From Luteimonas sp. JM171 (GTDB taxonomy: Bacteria; Pseudomonadota; Gammaproteobacteria; Xanthomonadales; Xanthomonadaceae), in NCBI RefSeq assembly GCF_001717465.1, contig NZ_CP017074.1:885642-949641 (forward strand): 64,000 nucleotides of DNA, given 5' to 3'. The notes under the pieces were generated by a model that did not search any database, had not been told where the DNA came from, and worked only from the letters and a program-made list of their open reading frames with translations. Positions 1 to 6,617 of the stretch are shown here, piece after piece; the first letter of the stretch is position 1, and every line of letters begins with the position of its first letter. The translations under genes were made by a program, and so were the position numbers.

Positions 1-505
1 CTAAGATCCGGACCAGGCGGGTGGAGTTGATCGACGTGTCGACCTCGATATGCAGTGCCTCGCGGTTGAAGTCGTCGACCACGTTGAAGGTCCGGAACCG
101 TCGCCCGCAGGCCAGCGCGTCGGACATGAAATCCGCCGACCAGACGGTGTCGGGGAGCCGCGGAACGTAGAGCGGTACCCGCTCGCGTTTGGGCAGCCGG
201 CGCCGGGCGGCGCGTCGCAGGTTGAGCTTCTTGGCCTTGTACACCCGATAGATCCGCTTGTGATTCCATTCCGGATGGCTGCGTCGAAGGAATGCGCGGC
301 ACTTCCAGAACCCACGGCTGGGGCGCTCCTGCACCAGCTGCGACAGGACAGCGATGATCTCCCCGTCGCGTACCGTCCAATCCAGCGGCGGGCGATACCA
401 GGCCGCCTCCGACAACCCAATCCATGCACAGGACCGACGCACCGACCGCGCGTGTACCTCGACCAGGTACCGCACCGCCTCGCGTTTACGCGCCGGCCCT
501 ACAGT
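1..505 (-). CDS. IS3-family transposase OrfB (integrase core, cut by window edge)
   Basis: Reading minus one from the end of orfA gives an open frame of 168 codons to base 1 without a stop. It contains the HTH_21 region (AVRYLVEVHARSVRRSC), the tract KRIYRVYKAKKL, and the start of the DDE catalytic core, VWSADFMSDAL followed by FNVVDDFNREAL. The rest, including the last D and E, lies outside the window. No independent start codon is obvious, so expression is expected through the frameshift. The competing minus-strand ORF at 1-429 in another frame has no such motifs. Confidence 0.85.
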
Positions 506-765
506 TTTTTTGCAATCAGATCCTTCATCGCGGCCGCGTCGAGTGCCAACTCCGCGTACATCCGCTTGAGCCGGCTGTTCTCGGCTTCCAGCTCCTTGAC
601 CCGCCGCAGCTCGGACGCTTCCAGGCCGCCGTACTTCGACTTCCACTTGTAGTAGGTCGGCACGCTGATGCCAGCTTGCCGGCAGATGTCCTTGACCGGG
701 ATACCGGCGTCAGCCTCCTTGAGGATGGCGACGATCTGGGTCTCGGTGAATCGGGATTTCTTCAT
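499..765 (-). CDS. IS3-family transposase OrfA (helix-turn-helix)
   Basis: This 88-residue protein begins MKKSRFTETQIVAILKEAD, a typical HTH_Tnp_1 start, with a helix-turn-helix around residues 10-45 and a leucine-zipper-like coiled coil at about 55-80. It binds the element ends and is the N-terminal part of the OrfAB transposase. The last codons read GCA AAA AAA CTG TAG; the run of seven A (plus-strand T tract 505-511) is a programmed -1 frameshift site that would fuse OrfA to OrfB. It resembles OrfA of the IS407-type group common in Xanthomonas. Confidence 0.9.
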   Translation of the reverse strand: MKKSRFTETQIVAILKEADAGIPVKDICRQAGISVPTYYKWKSKYGGLEASELRRVKELEAENSRLKRMYAELALDAAAMKDLIAKKL

Positions 766-830
766 GGAACCTCCTGGCTGGGAAATGTGCCAGAAAGTTC
801 TACTTCTGAGGACTCTATCTAGAGGGGAAG

Positions 831-1671
831 CTTACGCGGCAGGGACTGGAAGACGATGGGATCCAGGTTCCGGTCGCCAAGCTGTGCCGGTGGTTCGGCG
901 TGCCTCGGCGGACGGTGTATTACCGGGCCACCAAGGCCCCGCCGAAGGTGCGGCCGGAGTTGGCCGAGCCGATCAAGCAGTTGATCGAGGAGGAGCCGTC
1001 GTTCGGCTACCGCACCGTGGCCGGGTTGCTGGGCATGAACAAGAACACCGTGCAGCGCATCTTCCAGCTCAAGGGCTGGCAGGTCCGCAAACGGGCCGTG
1101 GGCCAGCGTCCGCGGATCCAGGCGCTGCCGTCGGTGGCAAGCGCACCCGATGAGCGCTGGGCGACCGACCTGTGCCGGATCTGGGGCGGCCGGGATGGCT
1201 GGCTGACACTGGCCCTGGTGGTGGACTGCCACACCCGGCAGCTGCTTGGCTGGCAGCTCTCGCGCAGCGGCAAGGCCAGCACCGCGGCATCTGCGCTGGA
1301 GCAAGCACTGATCACCCGTTATGGCTCGCTGGGGCGGGTTCCAACCCCCTTCCTGCTGCGCTCGGACAACGGTCTGGTCTTCACCAGTCGCCACTACACG
1401 CGACTGGTGCGCAGCTACGGCTTGAAACAGGAGTTCATCACCCCGCACTGCCCGCAGCAGAACGGCATGGTCGAACGGCTCATCCGCACCTTGAAGGAAC
1501 AATGTGCCCACCGACACCGCTTCGAGAGCCAGCAGCACGCAATGCGTGTGATCAGCGACTGGATCCAGTTCTACAACTTCCGGCGGCCCCACCAGGCGCT
1601 GGGCATGAAGACACCCGCTGAGGCTTATGCTTTAGCGGCCTGAGCTGTGCAGGAACCGCTGGGTCATTACA
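831..1671 (+). mobile_element. IS3-family insertion sequence lacking orfA
   Basis: The element carries an almost complete orfB but no orfA. Its right end is a plausible terminal repeat: read on the minus strand from 1671 it starts TGTAATGACCCAGCGG, and IS3 elements end in TG...CA. The 5' side stops abruptly where the minus-strand IS3 element begins, at roughly 831, so it was probably truncated when that neighbour inserted or by a later deletion. The right end abuts the last integron cassette directly. Confidence 0.75.
900..1643 (+). CDS. IS3-family transposase OrfB, orfA missing
   Basis: The frame from the GTG at 900 encodes 247 residues and is open back to about 810; the in-frame upstream residues (QGLEDDGIQVPVAKLCRWFG) are also OrfB-like, so the natural N-terminus is longer. 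The DDE core is intact: D in RWATDLCRI, D in LRSDNGLVF and E in NGMVERLIRTLKE, followed by the C-terminal FYNFRRPHQALG block. Without an orfA supplying the DNA-binding part and frameshift start, the element is probably not autonomous. Confidence 0.85.
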   Translation: MPRRTVYYRATKAPPKVRPELAEPIKQLIEEEPSFGYRTVAGLLGMNKNTVQRIFQLKGWQVRKRAVGQRPRIQALPSVASAPDERWATDLCRIWGGRDGWLTLALVVDCHTRQLLGWQLSRSGKASTAASALEQALITRYGSLGRVPTPFLLRSDNGLVFTSRHYTRLVRSYGLKQEFITPHCPQQNGMVERLIRTLKEQCAHRHRFESQQHAMRVISDWIQFYNFRRPHQALGMKTPAEAYALAA

Positions 1672-1683
1672 AGGGCGCGCACG

Positions 1684-2031
1684 CTAAGGGTCGCCAGCTT
1701 TCATGTTCTTTACTTCAAGAATCTCGTAAACATTCAGGATATAGCGGTAGGCACTAAGACTGCAGTAGGCCCCCGGAGGGCTTAGCTCGCCCCGGACAAT
1801 TACGTCAGCAGAACCCCAAGGGCCACCGAGGGGGCTGGGGGCTGCCTCCACAGGCAACCTGGCCTGCTCCATTTGAGATGCCCTCACGCACCAGGTTTCC
1901 TCGGATCCACTCGGCGTAAAGTTGGATGCTTCGAAGTGATAGAAGTACTTGCCACTATAGATCTGTCCCGGCGGATGAGTTGCACAACCGGCCAAGATGA
2001 GAAGTGCAGCGATGGCGAATACTTTGCTCAG
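1684..2031 (-). CDS. Cassette-encoded lipoprotein, unknown function
   Basis: From a CTG at 2031 the product is 115 residues with a short signal peptide and lipobox (KVFAIAALLILAGC), so a small lipoprotein is likely. I do not recognise a domain. No ATG, GTG or TTG occurs between the recombination core (GTTAGG, 2034-2040) and the signal peptide; the only further upstream in-frame ATG (2106) would translate the whole attC. The CTG sits exactly where other cassettes have ATG after the core, so either CTG is used or the start has decayed. The attC that should follow was lost at the IS junction (1671). Confidence 0.6.
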   Translation of the reverse strand: MSKVFAIAALLILAGCATHPPGQIYSGKYFYHFEASNFTPSGSEETWCVRASQMEQARLPVEAAPSPLGGPWGSADVIVRGELSPPGAYCSLSAYRYILNVYEILEVKNMKAGDP

Positions 2032-2033
2032 CG

Positions 2034-2093
2034 GCCTAACACCAGAATTAAGCCGTGGCGCGAAGCGGCATCGGCTTGAACGACTTGTTAGGC
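2034..2093 (-). repeat. attC site, 60 bp
   Basis: The site is bounded by GCCTAAC (2034-2040) and GTTAGGC (2087-2093), with inner arms TTAAGCCG and CGGCTTG and a short central GCGAAGC hairpin. It lies just downstream (minus strand) of the TonB-like cassette gene. Confidence 0.92.
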
Positions 2094-2095
2094 GG

Positions 2096-2422
2096 CTACG
2101 GATCACCGAACAGGAAGTCGAAGGGAACCTCCCGTGTGCGAGACCCCGAACCCGCCACGTAATGCCACTTTGCCACCGCCGCTTGAGCAGTACTAGCCCA
2201 AGCAGGGTGACCGGATGACGAAAGAACCTTGGACGAGCGGACGGAGCCGTCGGGGTCCACCTTGACCTCCAGCGTCACGTGCCCCTCGCGAAGCTCCGTA
2301 ATCCGAGGCGCCTCGGGCGCCGGACAGTGGATAAGTTCCGGGTCAAGCCTGGAGCAGAGCCCAGCGGCTGGTGGAGCAGTTGAAGTAGCTGCTAGTGCAA
2401 TGACGATCCAGAGTGCGCTCAT
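2096..2422 (-). CDS. Cassette-encoded secreted protein with TonB-C-like domain
   Basis: The 108-residue product has a signal peptide (MSALWIVIALAATSTAPPAAG) and a C-terminal domain at about residues 45-105 with the pattern of the TonB C-terminal fold: GHVTLEVKVDPDGSVRS, then VLSSSGHPAWASTAQAAVAKW. It lacks the long proline-rich spacer and membrane anchor of true TonB, so it is a free periplasmic domain of unknown role, not an energy transducer. The ATG follows the cassette core GTTAGGC by only four bases, and the stop precedes its attC. Structural call is by motif only. Confidence 0.65.
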   Translation of the reverse strand: MSALWIVIALAATSTAPPAAGLCSRLDPELIHCPAPEAPRITELREGHVTLEVKVDPDGSVRSSKVLSSSGHPAWASTAQAAVAKWHYVAGSGSRTREVPFDFLFGDP

Positions 2423-2426
2423 AGCC

Positions 2427-2486
2427 GCCTAACGCTGGACTTAAGCCGCGCCGCGAAACGGCGTCGGCTTGAAGGACTTGTTAGGC
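2427..2486 (-). repeat. attC site, 60 bp
   Basis: The site is bounded by GCCTAAC (2427-2433) and GTTAGGC (2480-2486), with inner arms TTAAGCCG/CGGCTTG. The 3' end of the upstream cassette gene (stop at 2441) lies inside it, so the site is partly translated. Confidence 0.92.
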
Positions 2487-3220
2487 CGCTGGTCCGCCAT
2501 GGTTACGCCTACATCCACAGACACGCGAACAACGACTGTCTTGTTCATGTAGTTAGAGCCGTACACCCGGAACACCTTGGGGAAGAATCCGACGCCTGAG
2601 CCAATCTCAATCTCATAGCAGTCTGGTAGGTCTAGAGTGACTGCGCCACAGTCAATTTTCTGAGCCGATTTAATCTCCCCTAGTCTCAGCCAAGACAACT
2701 CGGTCCGTTTGTCTGAGCAAGCGCCGGTGCAAGAGTACTGGAACTGTTGCTTTGCGAAGGGGCCTCTGCCCGCGATGGCTTCGACGTAACGAGCTATGTC
2801 TAGGGCAGATCCGTGATCAGGAGCAGGAAAATAGTTGCGTGTCGTTGTGACTGCGGAGCAAATTTCCCCGAACTCGTCATACGTCCACTCCCCAGGCGCT
2901 CTATGAATGTCTCCCTCCAGCCCGAAGCGGCGCTCTGATTGAAGAGAGTCGATGCGATCGTGTTCGTTAAAATCAACAGTAATCAGGTCTGACGCGCAGA
3001 CGCCGAAGTAGCTCCCCCAAGCAATTGCGTGACTATAGAAACGTATCGGCTCCAAGGTATCGAACCTAGGGCGATCTACATCAATCATGATTGACCCGGA
3101 TGCGCCAAGGAGTCTTGCTGCCAGCTCCCGCAATGGAAGGGTTTTCGCTTCGTGGACGGTCAGCGGCACCGAGTCGTTTGGCGTCGCCGCCAGCGCTGCT
3201 ACGAGAAAGATTGCGCGCAT
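2441..3220 (-). CDS. Cassette-encoded exported protein with attC-derived tail
   Basis: The start at 3220 is supported by a strong purine-rich ribosome site (AGGGGGG) six bases ahead; the frame is open to 3286 only because attC is read through. The 259-residue product has a short hydrophobic N-terminus (MRAIFLVAALAAT) and several cysteines (CASDL, EICSAV, SCTGACSD, DCGAVTLDLPDCYE) as expected for a secreted protein. Its final residues NKSFKPTPFRGAA are encoded by the attC site. I do not recognise a family; this tail form is a known hallmark of cassette proteins in xanthomonads. Confidence 0.7.
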   Translation of the reverse strand: MRAIFLVAALAATPNDSVPLTVHEAKTLPLRELAARLLGASGSIMIDVDRPRFDTLEPIRFYSHAIAWGSYFGVCASDLITVDFNEHDRIDSLQSERRFGLEGDIHRAPGEWTYDEFGEICSAVTTTRNYFPAPDHGSALDIARYVEAIAGRGPFAKQQFQYSCTGACSDKRTELSWLRLGEIKSAQKIDCGAVTLDLPDCYEIEIGSGVGFFPKVFRVYGSNYMNKTVVVRVSVDVGVTMADQRPNKSFKPTPFRGAA

Positions 3221-3234
3221 GCTGCCCCCCTGCG

Positions 3235-3346
3235 GCCTAACACCTAAGTTAAGCCGAGACGCGTAGTGGAGCCAACCACATGGCAAGCTTTACCTGCCAT
3301 GTGGTTGGTGGAACGAAGCGGCTTCGGCTTGAACGCATTGTTAGGC
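3235..3346 (-). repeat. attC site, 112 bp, with long internal palindrome
   Basis: Cores are GCCTAAC (3235-3241) and GTTAGGC (3340-3346). The variable terminal structure contains a 14-base palindrome, CCAACCACATGGCA and its complement, around an AGCTTTACC loop. It shares this insert with the attC at 4068-4179. Confidence 0.92.
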
Positions 3347-3358
3347 GGCTGCCGATCA

Positions 3359-3610
3359 CTATGCAGGATCACCAGAGGGCTCTACCAGCGACTCCATGCC
3401 ATCCTCTCGGATGATCCGCAGCAGCTCATCCAGGGCGAACTGGTCCGTGACGAATAGATCATCCCAAACGGTCGAAGTGTTGGATGCGTCGACTACTTCA
3501 AGCGTCCAGTCGGTGTCCGGCCCGCGATAGATCTCAACGCGCACGGTGTGCCCTTTGTCAGTGATCGACTGGCAGAGCGGGGACATTACAAGTTCGTAGT
3601 TGTCTTCCAT
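3359..3610 (-). CDS. Cassette-encoded small conserved hypothetical protein
   Basis: This 83-residue acidic protein has no signal peptide or membrane segment and is probably cytosolic. The blocks VRVEIYRG, DWTLEVVDASN, STVWDDLFVTDQFALDELL recall a small hypothetical family I have seen in Xanthomonas and Pseudomonas genomes, but no function is known to me. Unlike its neighbours the ATG (3610) lies about 35 bases from the cassette core (3644-3650), with a weak purine stretch (GAGACAACG) before it. The stop falls just before its attC. Confidence 0.65.
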   Translation of the reverse strand: MEDNYELVMSPLCQSITDKGHTVRVEIYRGPDTDWTLEVVDASNTSTVWDDLFVTDQFALDELLRIIREDGMESLVEPSGDPA

Positions 3611-3643
3611 CGTTGTCTCAGTTTGCGGTGTGGTTGCTCAGCC

Positions 3644-3704
3644 GCCTAACACCTTGAGTTAAGCCGAACCGCGAAGCGGTTTCGGCTTGAACGAACTGTT
3701 AGGC
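3644..3704 (-). repeat. attC site, 61 bp (copy 1 of duplicated cassette)
   Basis: The cores are GCCTAAC (3644-3650) and GTTAGGC (3698-3704), with a central CGAACCGCGAAGCGGTTTCG hairpin. It is identical to 4506-4566. Confidence 0.93.
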
Positions 3705-4063
3705 GCCTGGCCGGCGAGCCGCGCCTGCCGAAGAAGTTTGCCCGAAACCCAGAGGTTTTTGGCCGGGACCACGAGACCTGACTCAAAAGGCGTGAACAGC
3801 ACGGTCATGATGAGCATTGGGGCCAGTCCTATGGTCTTGGCTCGGGGATCGATGAATCGGCAGGTCCGGTGAACCGCAGTTGCGTACGCGATCACCGGTG
3901 GCACGGTGACCAGCGCCAGCAGGATTGCTGCGGCGATTGTGGTCTTGGATGCCTGGGTGACAGCGGTGACGATCATCGCAGTAAACCAAGCGACGTGTAT
4001 CACGTAGCTTTGAAGCAGACGTTTCCGTTGCTTTTGTAGCTTCGTGACCACGCAAGGTTCCAT
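3659..4063 (-). CDS. Cassette-encoded small membrane protein, copy 1
   Basis: The 134-residue product has a basic N-terminus and about three hydrophobic segments (roughly residues 20-37, 42-62 and 78-96), so it is an inner-membrane protein of unknown function. The last residues, SSFKPKPLRGSA, come from the attC site. The ATG at 4063 lies five bases after the cassette core GTTAGGC. The gene is repeated at 4521-4925 with an identical protein; in the 424-bp cassette I found one difference, A at 3983 against G at 4845, which is synonymous (Phe TTT/TTC). Confidence 0.75.
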   Translation of the reverse strand: MEPCVVTKLQKQRKRLLQSYVIHVAWFTAMIVTAVTQASKTTIAAAILLALVTVPPVIAYATAVHRTCRFIDPRAKTIGLAPMLIMTVLFTPFESGLVVPAKNLWVSGKLLRQARLAGQAPNSSFKPKPLRGSA

Positions 4064-4067
4064 AGGC

Positions 4068-4179
4068 GCCTAACACCTAAGTTAAGCCGCGCCGCAGCGG
4101 GGCGTGAAGCACATGGCAAGCTCTTCCTGCCATGTGGTTTGCGCCCCGATGCGGTGTCGGCTTGAACGCATTGTTAGGC
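4068..4179 (-). repeat. attC site, 112 bp, with long internal palindrome
   Basis: Cores are GCCTAAC (4068-4074) and GTTAGGC (4173-4179). The interior shares CACATGGCAAGCT and CCTGCCATGTGG with the attC at 3235-3346 but differs in the flanking GC arms, so the two are related and not identical. Confidence 0.92.
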
Positions 4180-4265
4180 GCCATGCCGGACGGTTACAAG
4201 TGCGGGCATGAGACTACTGACCCATGCACCAAGCGCCATTCCACCGAGCGCCCCGAATACTATTA

Positions 4266-4502
4266 CTACAACGTCCATTGCGTTCCGTCCAGCAGCAACG
4301 CTGCCGCAACAGCGGCCAGTAGGACTGCAACAGACACAATGGCTCCGGCTATACGCGATCGGCTATTCAGGGTGCTGGGCCTGTTGCAATGGTTACATAC
4401 GAACCTGGCTTTCTTGCTTCCAATCTGTAATGGCGCCAATGACCATGCTGATATGGTCATCGGTGATTTGCAGCTTGGGCAGCGGGTCGCGATGCGTTTC
4501 AT
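4266..4502 (-). CDS. Cassette-encoded zinc-ribbon membrane protein
   Basis: From ATG 4502 the product is 78 residues. Two CxxC pairs (C8/C11 in RCPSCKS and C36/C39 in VCNHCNR) form a zinc ribbon, followed by one transmembrane helix at about 51-72 and a very short tail. An in-frame GTG at 4514 would add four residues taken from the core site; I prefer 4502 because it lies four bases after GTTAGGC like other cassette starts. Function unknown; the fold suggests a membrane-tethered zinc-binding domain facing the cytoplasm. Confidence 0.65.
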   Translation of the reverse strand: MKRIATRCPSCKSPMTISAWSLAPLQIGSKKARFVCNHCNRPSTLNSRSRIAGAIVSVAVLLAAVAAALLLDGTQWTL

Positions 4503-4505
4503 GGC

Positions 4506-4566
4506 GCCTAACACCTTGAGTTAAGCCGAACCGCGAAGCGGTTTCGGCTTGAACGAACTGTTAGGC
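4506..4566 (-). repeat. attC site, 61 bp (copy 2 of duplicated cassette)
   Basis: The cores are GCCTAAC (4506-4512) and GTTAGGC (4560-4566). The sequence is identical to 3644-3704. Confidence 0.93.
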
Positions 4567-4925
4567 GCCTGGCCGGCGAGCCGCGCCTGCCGAAGAAGTT
4601 TGCCCGAAACCCAGAGGTTTTTGGCCGGGACCACGAGACCTGACTCAAAAGGCGTGAACAGCACGGTCATGATGAGCATTGGGGCCAGTCCTATGGTCTT
4701 GGCTCGGGGATCGATGAATCGGCAGGTCCGGTGAACCGCAGTTGCGTACGCGATCACCGGTGGCACGGTGACCAGCGCCAGCAGGATTGCTGCGGCGATT
4801 GTGGTCTTGGATGCCTGGGTGACAGCGGTGACGATCATCGCAGTGAACCAAGCGACGTGTATCACGTAGCTTTGAAGCAGACGTTTCCGTTGCTTTTGTA
4901 GCTTCGTGACCACGCAAGGTTCCAT
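4521..4925 (-). CDS. Cassette-encoded small membrane protein, copy 2
   Basis: This gene encodes the same 134-residue membrane protein as 3659-4063, including the attC-encoded SFKPKPLRGSA tail. The two cassettes are 862 bp apart and separated by the zinc-ribbon cassette. Identity ends exactly at cassette borders: the sequences beyond 4074 and 4936 belong to different attC sites. That pattern fits integrase-mediated copying or re-insertion and not unequal crossing-over of a larger block. No function is recognised. Confidence 0.75.
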   Translation of the reverse strand: MEPCVVTKLQKQRKRLLQSYVIHVAWFTAMIVTAVTQASKTTIAAAILLALVTVPPVIAYATAVHRTCRFIDPRAKTIGLAPMLIMTVLFTPFESGLVVPAKNLWVSGKLLRQARLAGQAPNSSFKPKPLRGSA

Positions 4926-4929
4926 AGGC

Positions 4930-5040
4930 GCCTAACGCCTGAGTTAAGCCGCGTGGCGCAGTTGCGCGGACGGCGTGGTAGCGTGAGCGTACCGCGCCGG
5001 CAAGCAACGAAGCAACGTCGGCTTGAACGAATTGTTAGAG
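4930..5040 (-). repeat. attC site, 111 bp, divergent interior
   Basis: The distal core is GCCTAAC (4930-4936) and the proximal core GTTAGAG (5034-5040), which pairs imperfectly. The inner TTAAGCCG and CGGCTTGAAC arms are conserved, but the interior (CGTGGTAGCGTGAGCGTACCGCG region) is unrelated to the other long sites. Confidence 0.88.
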
Positions 5041-5049
5041 TGCAGGTCG

Positions 5050-5454
5050 TTACTCTGAAATCCACGTTGACGCAAATGGCTCGCCACATTGTTGTGCAGC
5101 TACGGGATCAATATTGCGAGCGGTCGCACTATCCATGGCGCCGCCACCTACTCTCACAAAAGTTCCAATCAGATACGTTTTGCCAGTGACCTTGCTGTGT
5201 ACTCCCACTCCACGATTATTAGTTACCAGTTCAAACGCGGAGTGCCAGTAAGGCGTATGTAATGCGCCAGTTTCGGCTGATCTAATCCTAAGGCAGCCGT
5301 TATCGATGACAAGGTAACCGCTAGCTCCGCCGGTTAGCCATACTTCTTCGGTGCCTGAAGCGGGCGGTGGAAGTTGAGCGAACACAATCTTGTGTGCGGG
5401 GGCATGTGCGCAAGATGCCAAAAGAGCCAATATCAGGATTGCGAAAGTCTTCAT
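5050..5454 (-). CDS. First-cassette lipoprotein, unknown function
   Basis: The 134-residue product starts MKTFAILILALLASCAHAP, a short signal peptide with the lipobox LLASC (Cys15), so it should be a lipoprotein. The mature part contains two cysteines and no domain I recognise. It is the cassette nearest to the attI side. The ATG (5454) lies seven bases after the core GTTAGAG. Base composition is clearly more AT-rich than the flanking core genes, as for the whole cassette array. Confidence 0.65.
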   Translation of the reverse strand: MKTFAILILALLASCAHAPAHKIVFAQLPPPASGTEEVWLTGGASGYLVIDNGCLRIRSAETGALHTPYWHSAFELVTNNRGVGVHSKVTGKTYLIGTFVRVGGGAMDSATARNIDPVAAQQCGEPFASTWISE

Positions 5455-5490
5455 TACTGCACTCTAACACCTATTCGGCGGCAAAAATGA

Positions 5491-5518
5491 AGAATAATCC
5501 CGCCGCGTAACACGGCAA
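5491..5518 (-). promoter_or_regulatory. Possible promoter for the cassette array
   Basis: On the minus strand TTGCCG (5513-5518) and TATTCT (5491-5496) are spaced by 16 bases, about 37 bases before the first cassette ATG (5454). It is in the position expected of an integron Pc promoter, but the match is only moderate. Confidence 0.3.
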
Positions 5519-5534
5519 TCGCTCCGAATCAGTC

Positions 5535-5595
5535 GCATAACCCCCCTCCATAGGACGCAACGCGTCAGCTTTGCCGCATAACTCCCCAGTTATGC
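5535..5595. repeat. Degenerate attC-like element or nested palindrome
   Basis: The segment is bounded by GCATAAC (5535-5541) and GTTATGC (5589-5595), 61 bp apart, the same length as the true 61-bp attC sites, and has a near-central GACGC-AAC-GCGTC hairpin (5554-5566). Inside it, 5573-5583 and 5588-5598 form a perfect 11-base inverted repeat around CCCC. The cores differ from the attC consensus by one base. It may be a decayed attC/attI remnant or an unrelated hairpin; no T tract follows, so it is not a good terminator. Confidence 0.35.
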
Positions 5596-5705
5596 GGCTC
5601 CCCAAATCGAACCTAGCAGCAGGCGGCCACCGGCACAAGGCTCGGCGTACGACCACTGCCGGACCCGGCAGGCGAATTTCCCAGGCCAGCGGCTACTGCC
5701 GCCCC

Positions 5706-6617
5706 TCACCCAATCCGCTCAAACTCCATCAACGCCATCGGCGCCAGCCACGGCTGCAACCAGTGGTCGAGCAGCAGGAACGCAAACAGCGCCATCAGAT
5801 ACACCACGGAGTAGTTGAACGTCCGCATGGCGAAGAATTCATCCGGCGGATCCAGCATTTTCCAGGCGTACCAGAGGAACACCGCGCCCAGCACCAGCGC
5901 GCCGCCCAGATAGAACAGGCCGCTCATGCCGGTGGCCCAGGGCAGTACCGTCGCCACCACCAGCAGCACGGTGTAGAACAGGATCTGCCAGCGGGTGTAG
6001 GTGACGCCGTGGGTGACGGGCAGCATCGGGATCAGGGCGCGGGCATAGTCCTCGCGGCGGAAGATGGCCAGGGCCCAGAAATGCGGCGGGGTCCAGACGA
6101 AGATGATCAGCACCAGCAGCAGGGCGAAGGGGTCGAGCTCGCCGGTGATGGCGGCCCAGCCCAGCGCGGGCGGCGCGGCGCCGGCGATGCCACCGATCAC
6201 GATGTTCTGCGGCGTGGCGCGCTTGAGGTAGCCGGTATAGACGATGGCGTAGCCGATCAGCGAGGCGAAGGTGAGCACCGCGGTCAGGGGGTTCACCAGC
6301 AGCACCAGCACCAGCATGGAGGCCACGCCCAGGATGATGGCGAACACCAGCACCTGCATCGGGCGCAGGGTGCCGGTGGCCAGCGGGCGCTGGGAGGTGC
6401 GCACCATGACCTTGTCGATGCGCTGGTCGATGAGGTGGTTGATGGCGGCGGCGGACGCCGAGGCCAGCCAGATGCCGAGCATGCCGAACACCACCAGGTC
6501 CAGCGGCGGCAGCCCGGGCACGGCCAGGAACATGCCCACCAGGGCGGTGAACACGATCAGCGCCACCACCCGCGGCTTGGTCAGCTCCCAGTACTGGCCA
6601 ACGAGGTTCTTGGGCAT
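5706..6617 (-). CDS. cyoE: Heme O synthase (protoheme IX farnesyltransferase)
   Basis: This polytopic inner-membrane enzyme adds a farnesyl group to protoheme to give heme O, the precursor of heme A for the oxidase encoded alongside. The 303-residue length is normal. The UbiA-family motif [20 protein letters not shown] (about residues 81-100) supplies the aspartates that bind prenyl pyrophosphate, and [10 protein letters not shown] is the second family signature. The ATG overlaps the ctaA stop by one base, which fits translational coupling at the end of the cytochrome oxidase operon. Confidence 0.95.

What the first reader, a model, noticed from the sequence alone, without database searches (positions are those of the whole stretch)
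1672..5467. Integron cassette array with no integrase on the attI side
Seven full attC sites and eight minus-strand cassettes are visible, but the gene that should lie next to the first cassette (attI/intI side, above 5467) is cyoE of the cytochrome oxidase operon, and no integrase appears in the following 58 kb. Either the platform lost intI, or the cassettes were placed here at a secondary site by an integrase acting in trans. The chromosomal integron of Xanthomonas is usually described near ilvD, which is not seen here.
Basis: partly seen in the sequence, partly recalled or inferred. Interest (0 to 1): 0.7.

Follow-up and report, generated by a model that had tools for sequence, protein, structure and literature searches.

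The report
Cassette-capture array without its integrase
Beside a respiration gene, this bacterium carries a row of swappable gene cassettes that seems to have kept its docking site (attI) but has no integrase beside it; the only intact integron integrase found in the genome lies a million bases away, and similar docking sites with cassette rows but no integrase turn up in many relatives.

Summary
Window 1672-5467 (minus strand) contains seven exact integron cassettes and one truncated by an IS. No intI was found in the window or the 40 kb to its left. The only intI over the family cut-off lies 1.08 Mb away beside comEC, with its own array. By definition this is a CALIN, a known kind of element.

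Two things look new. First, the array starts at an attI-like site (crossover 5468|5467). A model trained only on intI-linked attI sites finds two sites in the 3-Mb genome: the integrase's attI and this one (E 0.011, a modest score). Second, it is a pattern. Of 53 attI-like sites away from a full intI (47 in the genus), 44 have attC downstream in the right orientation, none has attC upstream, and two keep a detectable intI remnant. Genomes of other genera in the family, four of them single-contig, show the same.

Best reading: an integron platform without intI (attI plus array), probably served in trans. Trans service is inferred. A secondary-site (attG) insertion remains the main rival for this locus. 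The ilvD comparison does not apply.

The parts
5464..5512 (-). attI-like head of the array; crossover G(5468)|TT(5467)
   Evidence: Model R2, trained on 17 intI-linked attI sites: 17.4 bits, E 0.0108 genome-wide, one of only two R2 hits at E<=10 in the genome. 24-nt matrix: best of 30,912 G|TT sites
5468..5705 (-). cyoE-to-array spacer; its last 44 nt align with the intI-linked attI of relative G017
   Evidence: Local alignment score 41, 0 of 1000 dinucleotide shuffles reach it; no intI remnant
4936..5467 (-). cassette 1 (532 bp); ORF 5050-5454, no Pfam match; attC 4930-5040
   Evidence: start TTAGAG = reverse complement of own R'' CTCTAA; Pfam
4512..4935 (-). cassette 2 (424 bp); ORF 4521-4925; attC 4506-4566
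   Evidence: exact unit; one mismatch in 424 to cassette 4
4074..4511 (-). cassette 3 (438 bp); ORF within 4266-4514 (start uncertain), weak zinc-ribbon resemblance below cut-off; attC 4068-4179
   Evidence: attC 99% identical over 112 nt to one in the intI-linked array
3650..4073 (-). cassette 4 (424 bp), near-identical copy of cassette 2; ORF 3659-4063, no Pfam match; attC 3644-3704
3241..3649 (-). cassette 5 (409 bp); ORF 3359-3610, no Pfam match; attC 3235-3346
2433..3240 (-). cassette 6 (808 bp); ORF within 2441-3286 (start uncertain), no Pfam match; attC 2427-2486
2040..2432 (-). cassette 7 (393 bp); ORF 2096-2422, TonB C-terminal domain; attC 2034-2093
   Evidence: PF03544 E 1.4e-10
1672..2039 (-). 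cassette 8, truncated; ORF within 1684-2106 (start uncertain); no attC at its distal end
   Evidence: starts TTAGGC; no attC match there
816..1671 (+). IS3-family transposase region abutting cassette 8; limits approximate; a related copy elsewhere
   Evidence: NF033516 188.9 bits over cut-off 160; 86% match over 581 bases at C1:2733600
1..815 (-). second IS-like element running off the window (HTH_Tnp_1 and integrase core pieces); near-identical copies elsewhere
   Evidence: PF01527, PF00665 (weak), PF13276 (weak); 98% copy at C1:1533060
5706..6617 (-). cyoE, host gene upstream of the array and codirectional with it
   Evidence: TIGR01473 over cut-off; used as the comparison gene

Best explanation
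The window holds an integron platform without an integrase gene: an attI-like site (crossover 5468|5467) followed by seven intact cassettes and one truncated by an IS, placed just downstream of cyoE. It is one of many attI-headed, intI-less arrays in this genus and family. The single intact IntI encoded at the comEC locus, 1.08 Mb away, most likely inserts and removes cassettes here in trans, by attI x attC and attC x attC recombination. Shown: cassette boundaries, attI-like head, absence of intI nearby, an intact intI elsewhere, recurrence in relatives. Inferred: that the head is an attI by descent, and that IntI acts on it in trans.
For: (1) Seven exact R'/R'' units. (2) Head: best of 30,912 G|TT sites with a 24-nt attI matrix and third or better with 12 nt. 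With the own and G018 attI left out of training it is still the best at 24 nt, but only p 2.2e-3 at 12 nt. R2 finds two sites at E<=10 in the genome and none in 1.48 Mb of cyoE flanks of 80 other records. Alignment to the G017 intI-linked attI: 0 of 1000 shuffles. (3) Recurrence: of 53 attI-like sites away from a full intI, 44 have attC within 3 kb downstream in the right orientation and none has attC upstream; 33 of these 44 show an exact start-hexamer match to the first attC. (4) Six further genomes of the family carry both a full integron and an attI-like site with attC downstream and no intI; four of the six are single-contig. (5) Features kept in such sites: hairpin 26 of 32 examined (intI-linked 13 of 17, background 987 of 6147); promoter-like boxes 20 of 32 (9 of 17; background 130 of 4245). 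(6) IntI of this genome is full length; residues 27-338 of 339 align with 2a3v (IntI4 in the record), E 1.5e-98. (7) Cassettes 2 and 4 differ by 1 nt in 424, which suggests recent movement or duplication.
Against: The window head scores modestly (17.4 bits, E 0.011). It lacks the hairpin at the usual place (a 5-bp stem exists only with a 19-nt loop) and the promoter boxes (6 of 12). Against this genome's own intI-linked attI the local alignment is not significant (124 of 1000 shuffles), against G018's it is borderline (14 of 1000), and its 24-nt identity to its own attI is 15 of 24, rank 5 of 17. No intI remnant is present here. No cassette body is shared with the intI-linked array of this genome. 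Several intI-less attC clusters in G017, G018 and G023 have no attI-like head. No activity was measured.
Confidence: 0.68

Rival explanations
1. Secondary-site insertion: the distant IntI placed a first cassette at a chance genomic site (attG) downstream of cyoE that happens to resemble attI, and further cassettes followed by attC x attC recombination.
For: No intI remnant; weak score of the head; head differs from the genome's own attI. Some other intI-less attC clusters in relatives have no attI-like head. Insertion at attG sites is published for E. coli (cited in PMC12444791, passages read; the primary paper is not held).
Against: The match extends 44 nt upstream to the intI-linked attI of G017, more than the few bases around G|TT that secondary sites are known to need (recalled). 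Heads of other intI-less arrays can be exact attI copies, for example G023, 24 of 24 identical to its own attI.
Confidence: 0.22
2. IS- or recombination-driven rearrangement moved a piece of the intI-linked array here.
For: Two IS elements abut the distal end. A gene X adjacent to cyoE in G017, G018 and NML91-0213 lies 9.8 kb from it here.
Against: The proximal (cyoE) side has no IS and starts at an exact cassette boundary with an attI-like head. No cassette body is shared with the intI-linked array.
Confidence: 0.06
3. Assembly artefact: the array is misplaced next to cyoE.
For: A single N sits at G000:C1:885641, directly left of the window inside an IS.
Against: The cyoE-to-array junction and the array itself contain no N. 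Gene X (881 kb) and cyoE (891 kb) are neighbours in relatives, so both flanks belong together.
Confidence: 0.03

Closest known systems
[quoted passage not shown]
   Same: Two or more attC, cassettes in one orientation, no intI nearby; reported away from the canonical locus in about 50% of Xanthomonas genomes (PMC12444791, passages read).
   Different: The definition says nothing of attI, and IntegronFinder 2.0 does not detect attI outside class 1 (PMC9024848, passages read). Here the array has an attI-like head.
CALIN with its own attI in Shewanella prophage M16-3
   Same: A CALIN headed by the same attI as a complete integron in the same prophage (PMC9892861, passages read). This is the one prior case found.
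   Different: Single case in a prophage; here the pattern recurs in chromosomes across a genus and family.
Sedentary chromosomal integron of Xanthomonas at ilvD
   Same: Integron at a conserved chromosomal position with arrays of mostly unknown genes (PMC12444791, passages read).
   Different: Here intI lies beside comEC and the window array has no intI.
Delta-attI-type cassettes of class 1 and 2 integrons
   Same: attI pieces found away from the intI-proximal position (PMC12901181, passages read).
   Different: There a partial attI replaces attC downstream of the ORF within an array; here it lies upstream of the first cassette.
attG insertions
   Same: Cassettes outside attI and attC, integrase in trans.
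   Different: attG is by definition not attI; the head here is attI-like.

Membership tests
[quoted passage not shown]
   7 attC, exact cassette units
CALIN | no integron integrase nearby | tested here: met
   none in the 64-kb window or 40 kb left of it; intI 1.08 Mb away
Complete integron | intI adjacent to attI | tested here: not met
   cyoE lies there; no remnant
Complete integron | attI at the head of the array | tested here: inconclusive
   attI-like by model, matrix and alignment but modest score; function not testable here
Complete integron | array of attC-bearing cassettes | tested here: met
Complete integron | functional integrase acting on the array | not testable with these tools
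   IntI is intact by sequence and aligns with 2a3v; activity unknown
attG insertion | insertion site unrelated to attI or attC | tested here: inconclusive
   head resembles the attI of G017 over 44 nt, not significantly its own genome's attI
Xanthomonas ilvD integron | intI downstream of ilvD | tested here: not met
   intI is directly followed by comEC (TIGR00361 over cut-off); ilvD itself was not searched for

The most novel reading that the evidence does not exclude
In this bacterial family one integrase serves several capture platforms. Modules of attI, often with a cassette promoter, are set at several chromosomal loci behind conserved genes and are kept there without intI, so the integron is a distributed, multi-locus system. 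Many CALINs would then not be debris but working satellite platforms, and attI itself would be the unit that spreads or is selectively retained.
Probability: 0.35. Interest if true: 0.75.

Novelty: new variant of a known kind. Interest (0 to 1): 0.58.

Why it matters
About as many CALINs as complete integrons are recorded in genomes (2961 against 2760 in PMC9024848, passages read). They have been proposed to be degraded integrons, and scattered insertion at attG sites has also been considered (PMC12444791, passages read). If many keep attI, the origin of CALINs becomes directly testable, current software misses a defining part, and a single integrase may control several cassette platforms in one chromosome. 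For the window itself the point is narrower: it explains how a cassette array can sit beside cyoE with no integrase.

Tried and rejected
Recent cassette exchange between a satellite array and the intI-linked array: the best within-genome match (G018, 1141 nt, 99.9%) contains an IS30-family transposase, so it was dropped. Of 13 genomes compared, G005, G010, G017 and G018 share other stretches of 180-502 nt at about 81-91%, and G023 shares stretches up to 1534 nt at 80-91% that I did not identify; these are not recent copies.

intI remnants: a first test used stop-to-stop ORFs whose ends run over attI and gave false hits. With trimmed queries 2 of 53 sites keep a remnant. A further site, in G026, lies beside an 87-residue intI fragment and was left out of the 53.

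Own-genome attI similarity as a sign of co-evolution: 346 of 456 positions, reached by 0 of 20,000 random assignments (19 of the 53 sites, those whose genome's attI was in hand, with four sites of unclear array or crossover left out). In a second set of 10 sites the total was 173 of 240, reached by 162 of 20,000, after a run with a misplaced crossover gave 1351 of 20,000. Relatedness is not controlled, several sites fit other genomes better, and this window's own head ranks 5 of 17. It is only weak support.

Hairpin and promoter counts cover 32 of the 53 sites; 21 were left out (contig ends, no clear crossover, or not entered).

An orthologous array beside cyoE: none of 80 named cyoE loci and 1 of 20 unnamed ones has an attC there (G010, opposite orientation).

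Rfam found nothing at its gathering scores and there are no tRNAs in the window. The primary papers on CALINs (2016) and attG (2024) are not held; what I say of them beyond the citing papers is recalled.
Full report
1. What is in the window. Seven attC sites on the minus strand bound seven cassettes between 5467 and 2040, and an eighth cassette (2039 to about 1672) ends without attC where an IS3-family transposase region begins. In every complete cassette the first six bases equal the reverse complement of the R'' box of its own attC, including cassette 1, whose box is the less common TTAGAG. The proximal crossover is therefore fixed at 5468|5467. Cassettes 2 and 4 are copies with one mismatch in 424. 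Of seven cassette ORFs scanned (the copy in cassette 2 was not scanned apart), one has a TonB C-terminal domain over cut-off and none of the others has a Pfam match over cut-off.

2. Where the integrase is. The window is C1:885642-949641 of a single-contig genome of 2,992,253 bases. With TIGR02249 the genome has one match over the curated cut-off, at 1970509-1971447 (494 bits). It has a full open frame, and residues 27-338 of 339 align with the solved integron integrase 2a3v. It heads its own array of 13 attC on the same strand as the window array, with one degenerate attC further out, and is followed by comEC. The attC of the two arrays are alike (up to 99% over 112 nt) but no cassette body is shared. 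R1, the attC model, finds attC in this genome only in these two clusters (E<=0.01; 150 of 2397 first-look candidates were scored). The window and the 40 kb to its left hold no intI.

3. The site in relatives. In G017, G018 and NML91-0213 a gene here called X follows cyoE within a few tens of bases, and in G023 within about 320. In this genome X and cyoE are 9.8 kb apart, with yajQ, a class C beta-lactamase gene, a small unknown gene, a GFA-family gene, two IS elements and the array between them. Of the 20 unnamed relatives whose cyoE flank was read, one (G010) has a solo attC there, in the opposite orientation; of 80 named cyoE loci none has one. No IntI match at E<=0.01 lies in any of these 100 flanks.

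4. The head of the array. The intI-linked attI of this genome reads CGAATAGTTG|TTAG and the head of the window array CGAATAGGTG|TTAG. A 24-nt matrix from 16 intI-linked attI sites ranks the head first among 30,912 G|TT sites (the background includes the window itself); without the own and the G018 sites it is still first at 24 nt, but only p 2.2e-3 at 12 nt. R2, a 56-position sequence model trained on 17 intI-linked sites and no CALIN head, gives two matches at E<=10 in the genome: the intI-linked attI (5.7e-9) and this head (0.0108) (repeated on this genome alone, 150 of 365 candidates scored). In 1.48 Mb of cyoE flanks of 80 other records it gives none. The head aligns over 44 nt with the intI-linked attI of G017 (0 of 1000 shuffles), weakly with that of G018 (14 of 1000), and not significantly with that of its own genome (124 of 1000). 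So it is attI-like of the G017 type, while the genome's own integrase is closer to that of G023 (71% against 64%). It lacks the short hairpin and the promoter boxes found in most sites, as do the other sites of this type.

5. It is a pattern. One search covered 61 genomes (37 of the genus) with R2, under filters that lose some weak matches. It gave 76 matches with E<=0.02: 25 lie beside an intI over the cut-off, one (G026) beside an intI fragment, and 50 lie away from any; I examined these 50 plus 3 weaker ones, 53 sites, 47 of them in the genus and 6 in two genomes of other families. 44 of 53 have attC within 3 kb downstream in the right orientation. Of the 9 without, 6 have under 550 nt before the contig ends. 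None of 53 has attC within 3 kb upstream. Among the 44, the first attC matches the start hexamer exactly in 33, with one mismatch in 6, and not in 5; the commonest hexamer, TTAGGC, makes part of this unremarkable. IntI remnants occur at 2 of 53. By a frame-length and GC3 score, 38 of 53 lie behind a codirectional long frame, and several loci are shared between species: behind genes resembling a B12-dependent ribonucleotide reductase, a PfkB-type nucleoside kinase, peptidyl-dipeptidase Dcp, a PPi-phosphofructokinase and a dipeptidyl-peptidase (Dcp and the phosphofructokinase over their cut-offs, the others below). At comEC, which follows intI in G000, G010, G012, G017, G018 and G023, one genome (G029) has attI and attC but no intI there, a likely in-place loss. 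Not every intI-less attC cluster is attI-headed: in G017, G018 and G023 four of the cluster heads examined were, and the clusters at 2095 kb and 548 kb (G017), 55 kb (G018), and 2979/2986, 2359 and 3472 kb (G023) were not.

6. Beyond the genus. R2 at E<=0.001 has matches in 69 of 149 genomes of the family, in 31 of 54 genera; 30 of these 69 have two or more. Of 20 such sites fetched, chosen for large contigs, 10 have a full intI, 2 a remnant and 8 none; of the 8, 7 have at least one attC downstream in the right orientation. Six genomes hold both kinds: G096, G124, G141 and G145 (single-contig), and G072 and G180 (G180 is of the window's own genus). Draft assembly does not explain that.

7. How it works. 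The reaction steps are those established for integrons: IntI joins a folded attC to attI, and attC to attC, at G|TT (recalled). For this array the enzyme would have to come from the comEC locus in trans. That is inferred. The hairpin (26 of 32 sites examined of 53; intI-linked 13 of 17; background 987 of 6147) and the promoter boxes (at least 8 of 12 letters in 20 of 32, 18 of these 63-65 nt before the crossover; intI-linked 9 of 17; background 130 of 4245) suggest that sites without intI are kept for use. Own-genome similarity of attI points the same way but weakly.

8. What is known. CALINs away from the main integron are described in about half of Xanthomonas genomes, at seven loci, without mention of attI heads in the passages read (PMC12444791). 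IntegronFinder 2.0 does not detect attI outside class 1, and its paper cites CALINs as proposed degraded integrons (PMC9024848, passages). One prophage of Shewanella has a CALIN with its own attI (PMC9892861, passages). Passages of PMC11089894, PMC9229058 and PMC12901181 gave no further case of a CALIN with attI. I found no report of the pattern across a genus in the searches; the library lacks many papers. The window array is thus a CALIN by definition and, if the head is accepted, an integron platform lacking intI.

Noticed in passing
G000:C1:885641 (base before window position 1; L024:19642): A single N lies inside an IS directly left of the window, probably an assembly join.
   Followed up: partly
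L024:16796-17983 (minus), about 1.7 kb left of the window: A class C beta-lactamase gene (NF033085 over cut-off; best model IDC family, below its cut-off) lies on the cassette strand beyond the IS pair, without attC. IDC-1 was described from integron cassettes, with its closest relatives chromosomal in Lysobacter and Luteimonas (PMC7148499, passages read), so this neighbourhood may bear on where such cassettes come from.
   Followed up: partly
L024:18001-18594 (minus): A small unknown gene beside a GFA-family gene (PF04828) is 49% identical to an ORF inside the intI-linked array of G017 (L079:4985-5515); it may be a former cassette gene without attC.
   Followed up: partly
L024:15583-16065: yajQ sits next to gene X here; 9 of 13 genus relatives searched have it, the four without being G014, G017, G018 and G023, and it was not seen in the 20 cyoE flanks.
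   Followed up: partly
window 5573-5598 (plus): Perfect inverted repeat GCCGCATAACT-CCCC-AGTTATGCGGC between cyoE and the array; possible terminator or distal attI element.
   Followed up: no
L069:12679-14004: In relative G010 a weak attI-like site (E 0.2 genome-wide) and one attC lie beside cyoE, pointing towards it; apparently a separate array in the same intergenic region.
   Followed up: partly
L087: In G023 two blocks 6983 bases apart carry the same three attC positions and scores, which looks like a segmental duplication.
   Followed up: no
L084:8572-9712 and L083:10011-11151: Nearly identical IS30-family elements at attC sites of two separate arrays of G018.
   Followed up: partly
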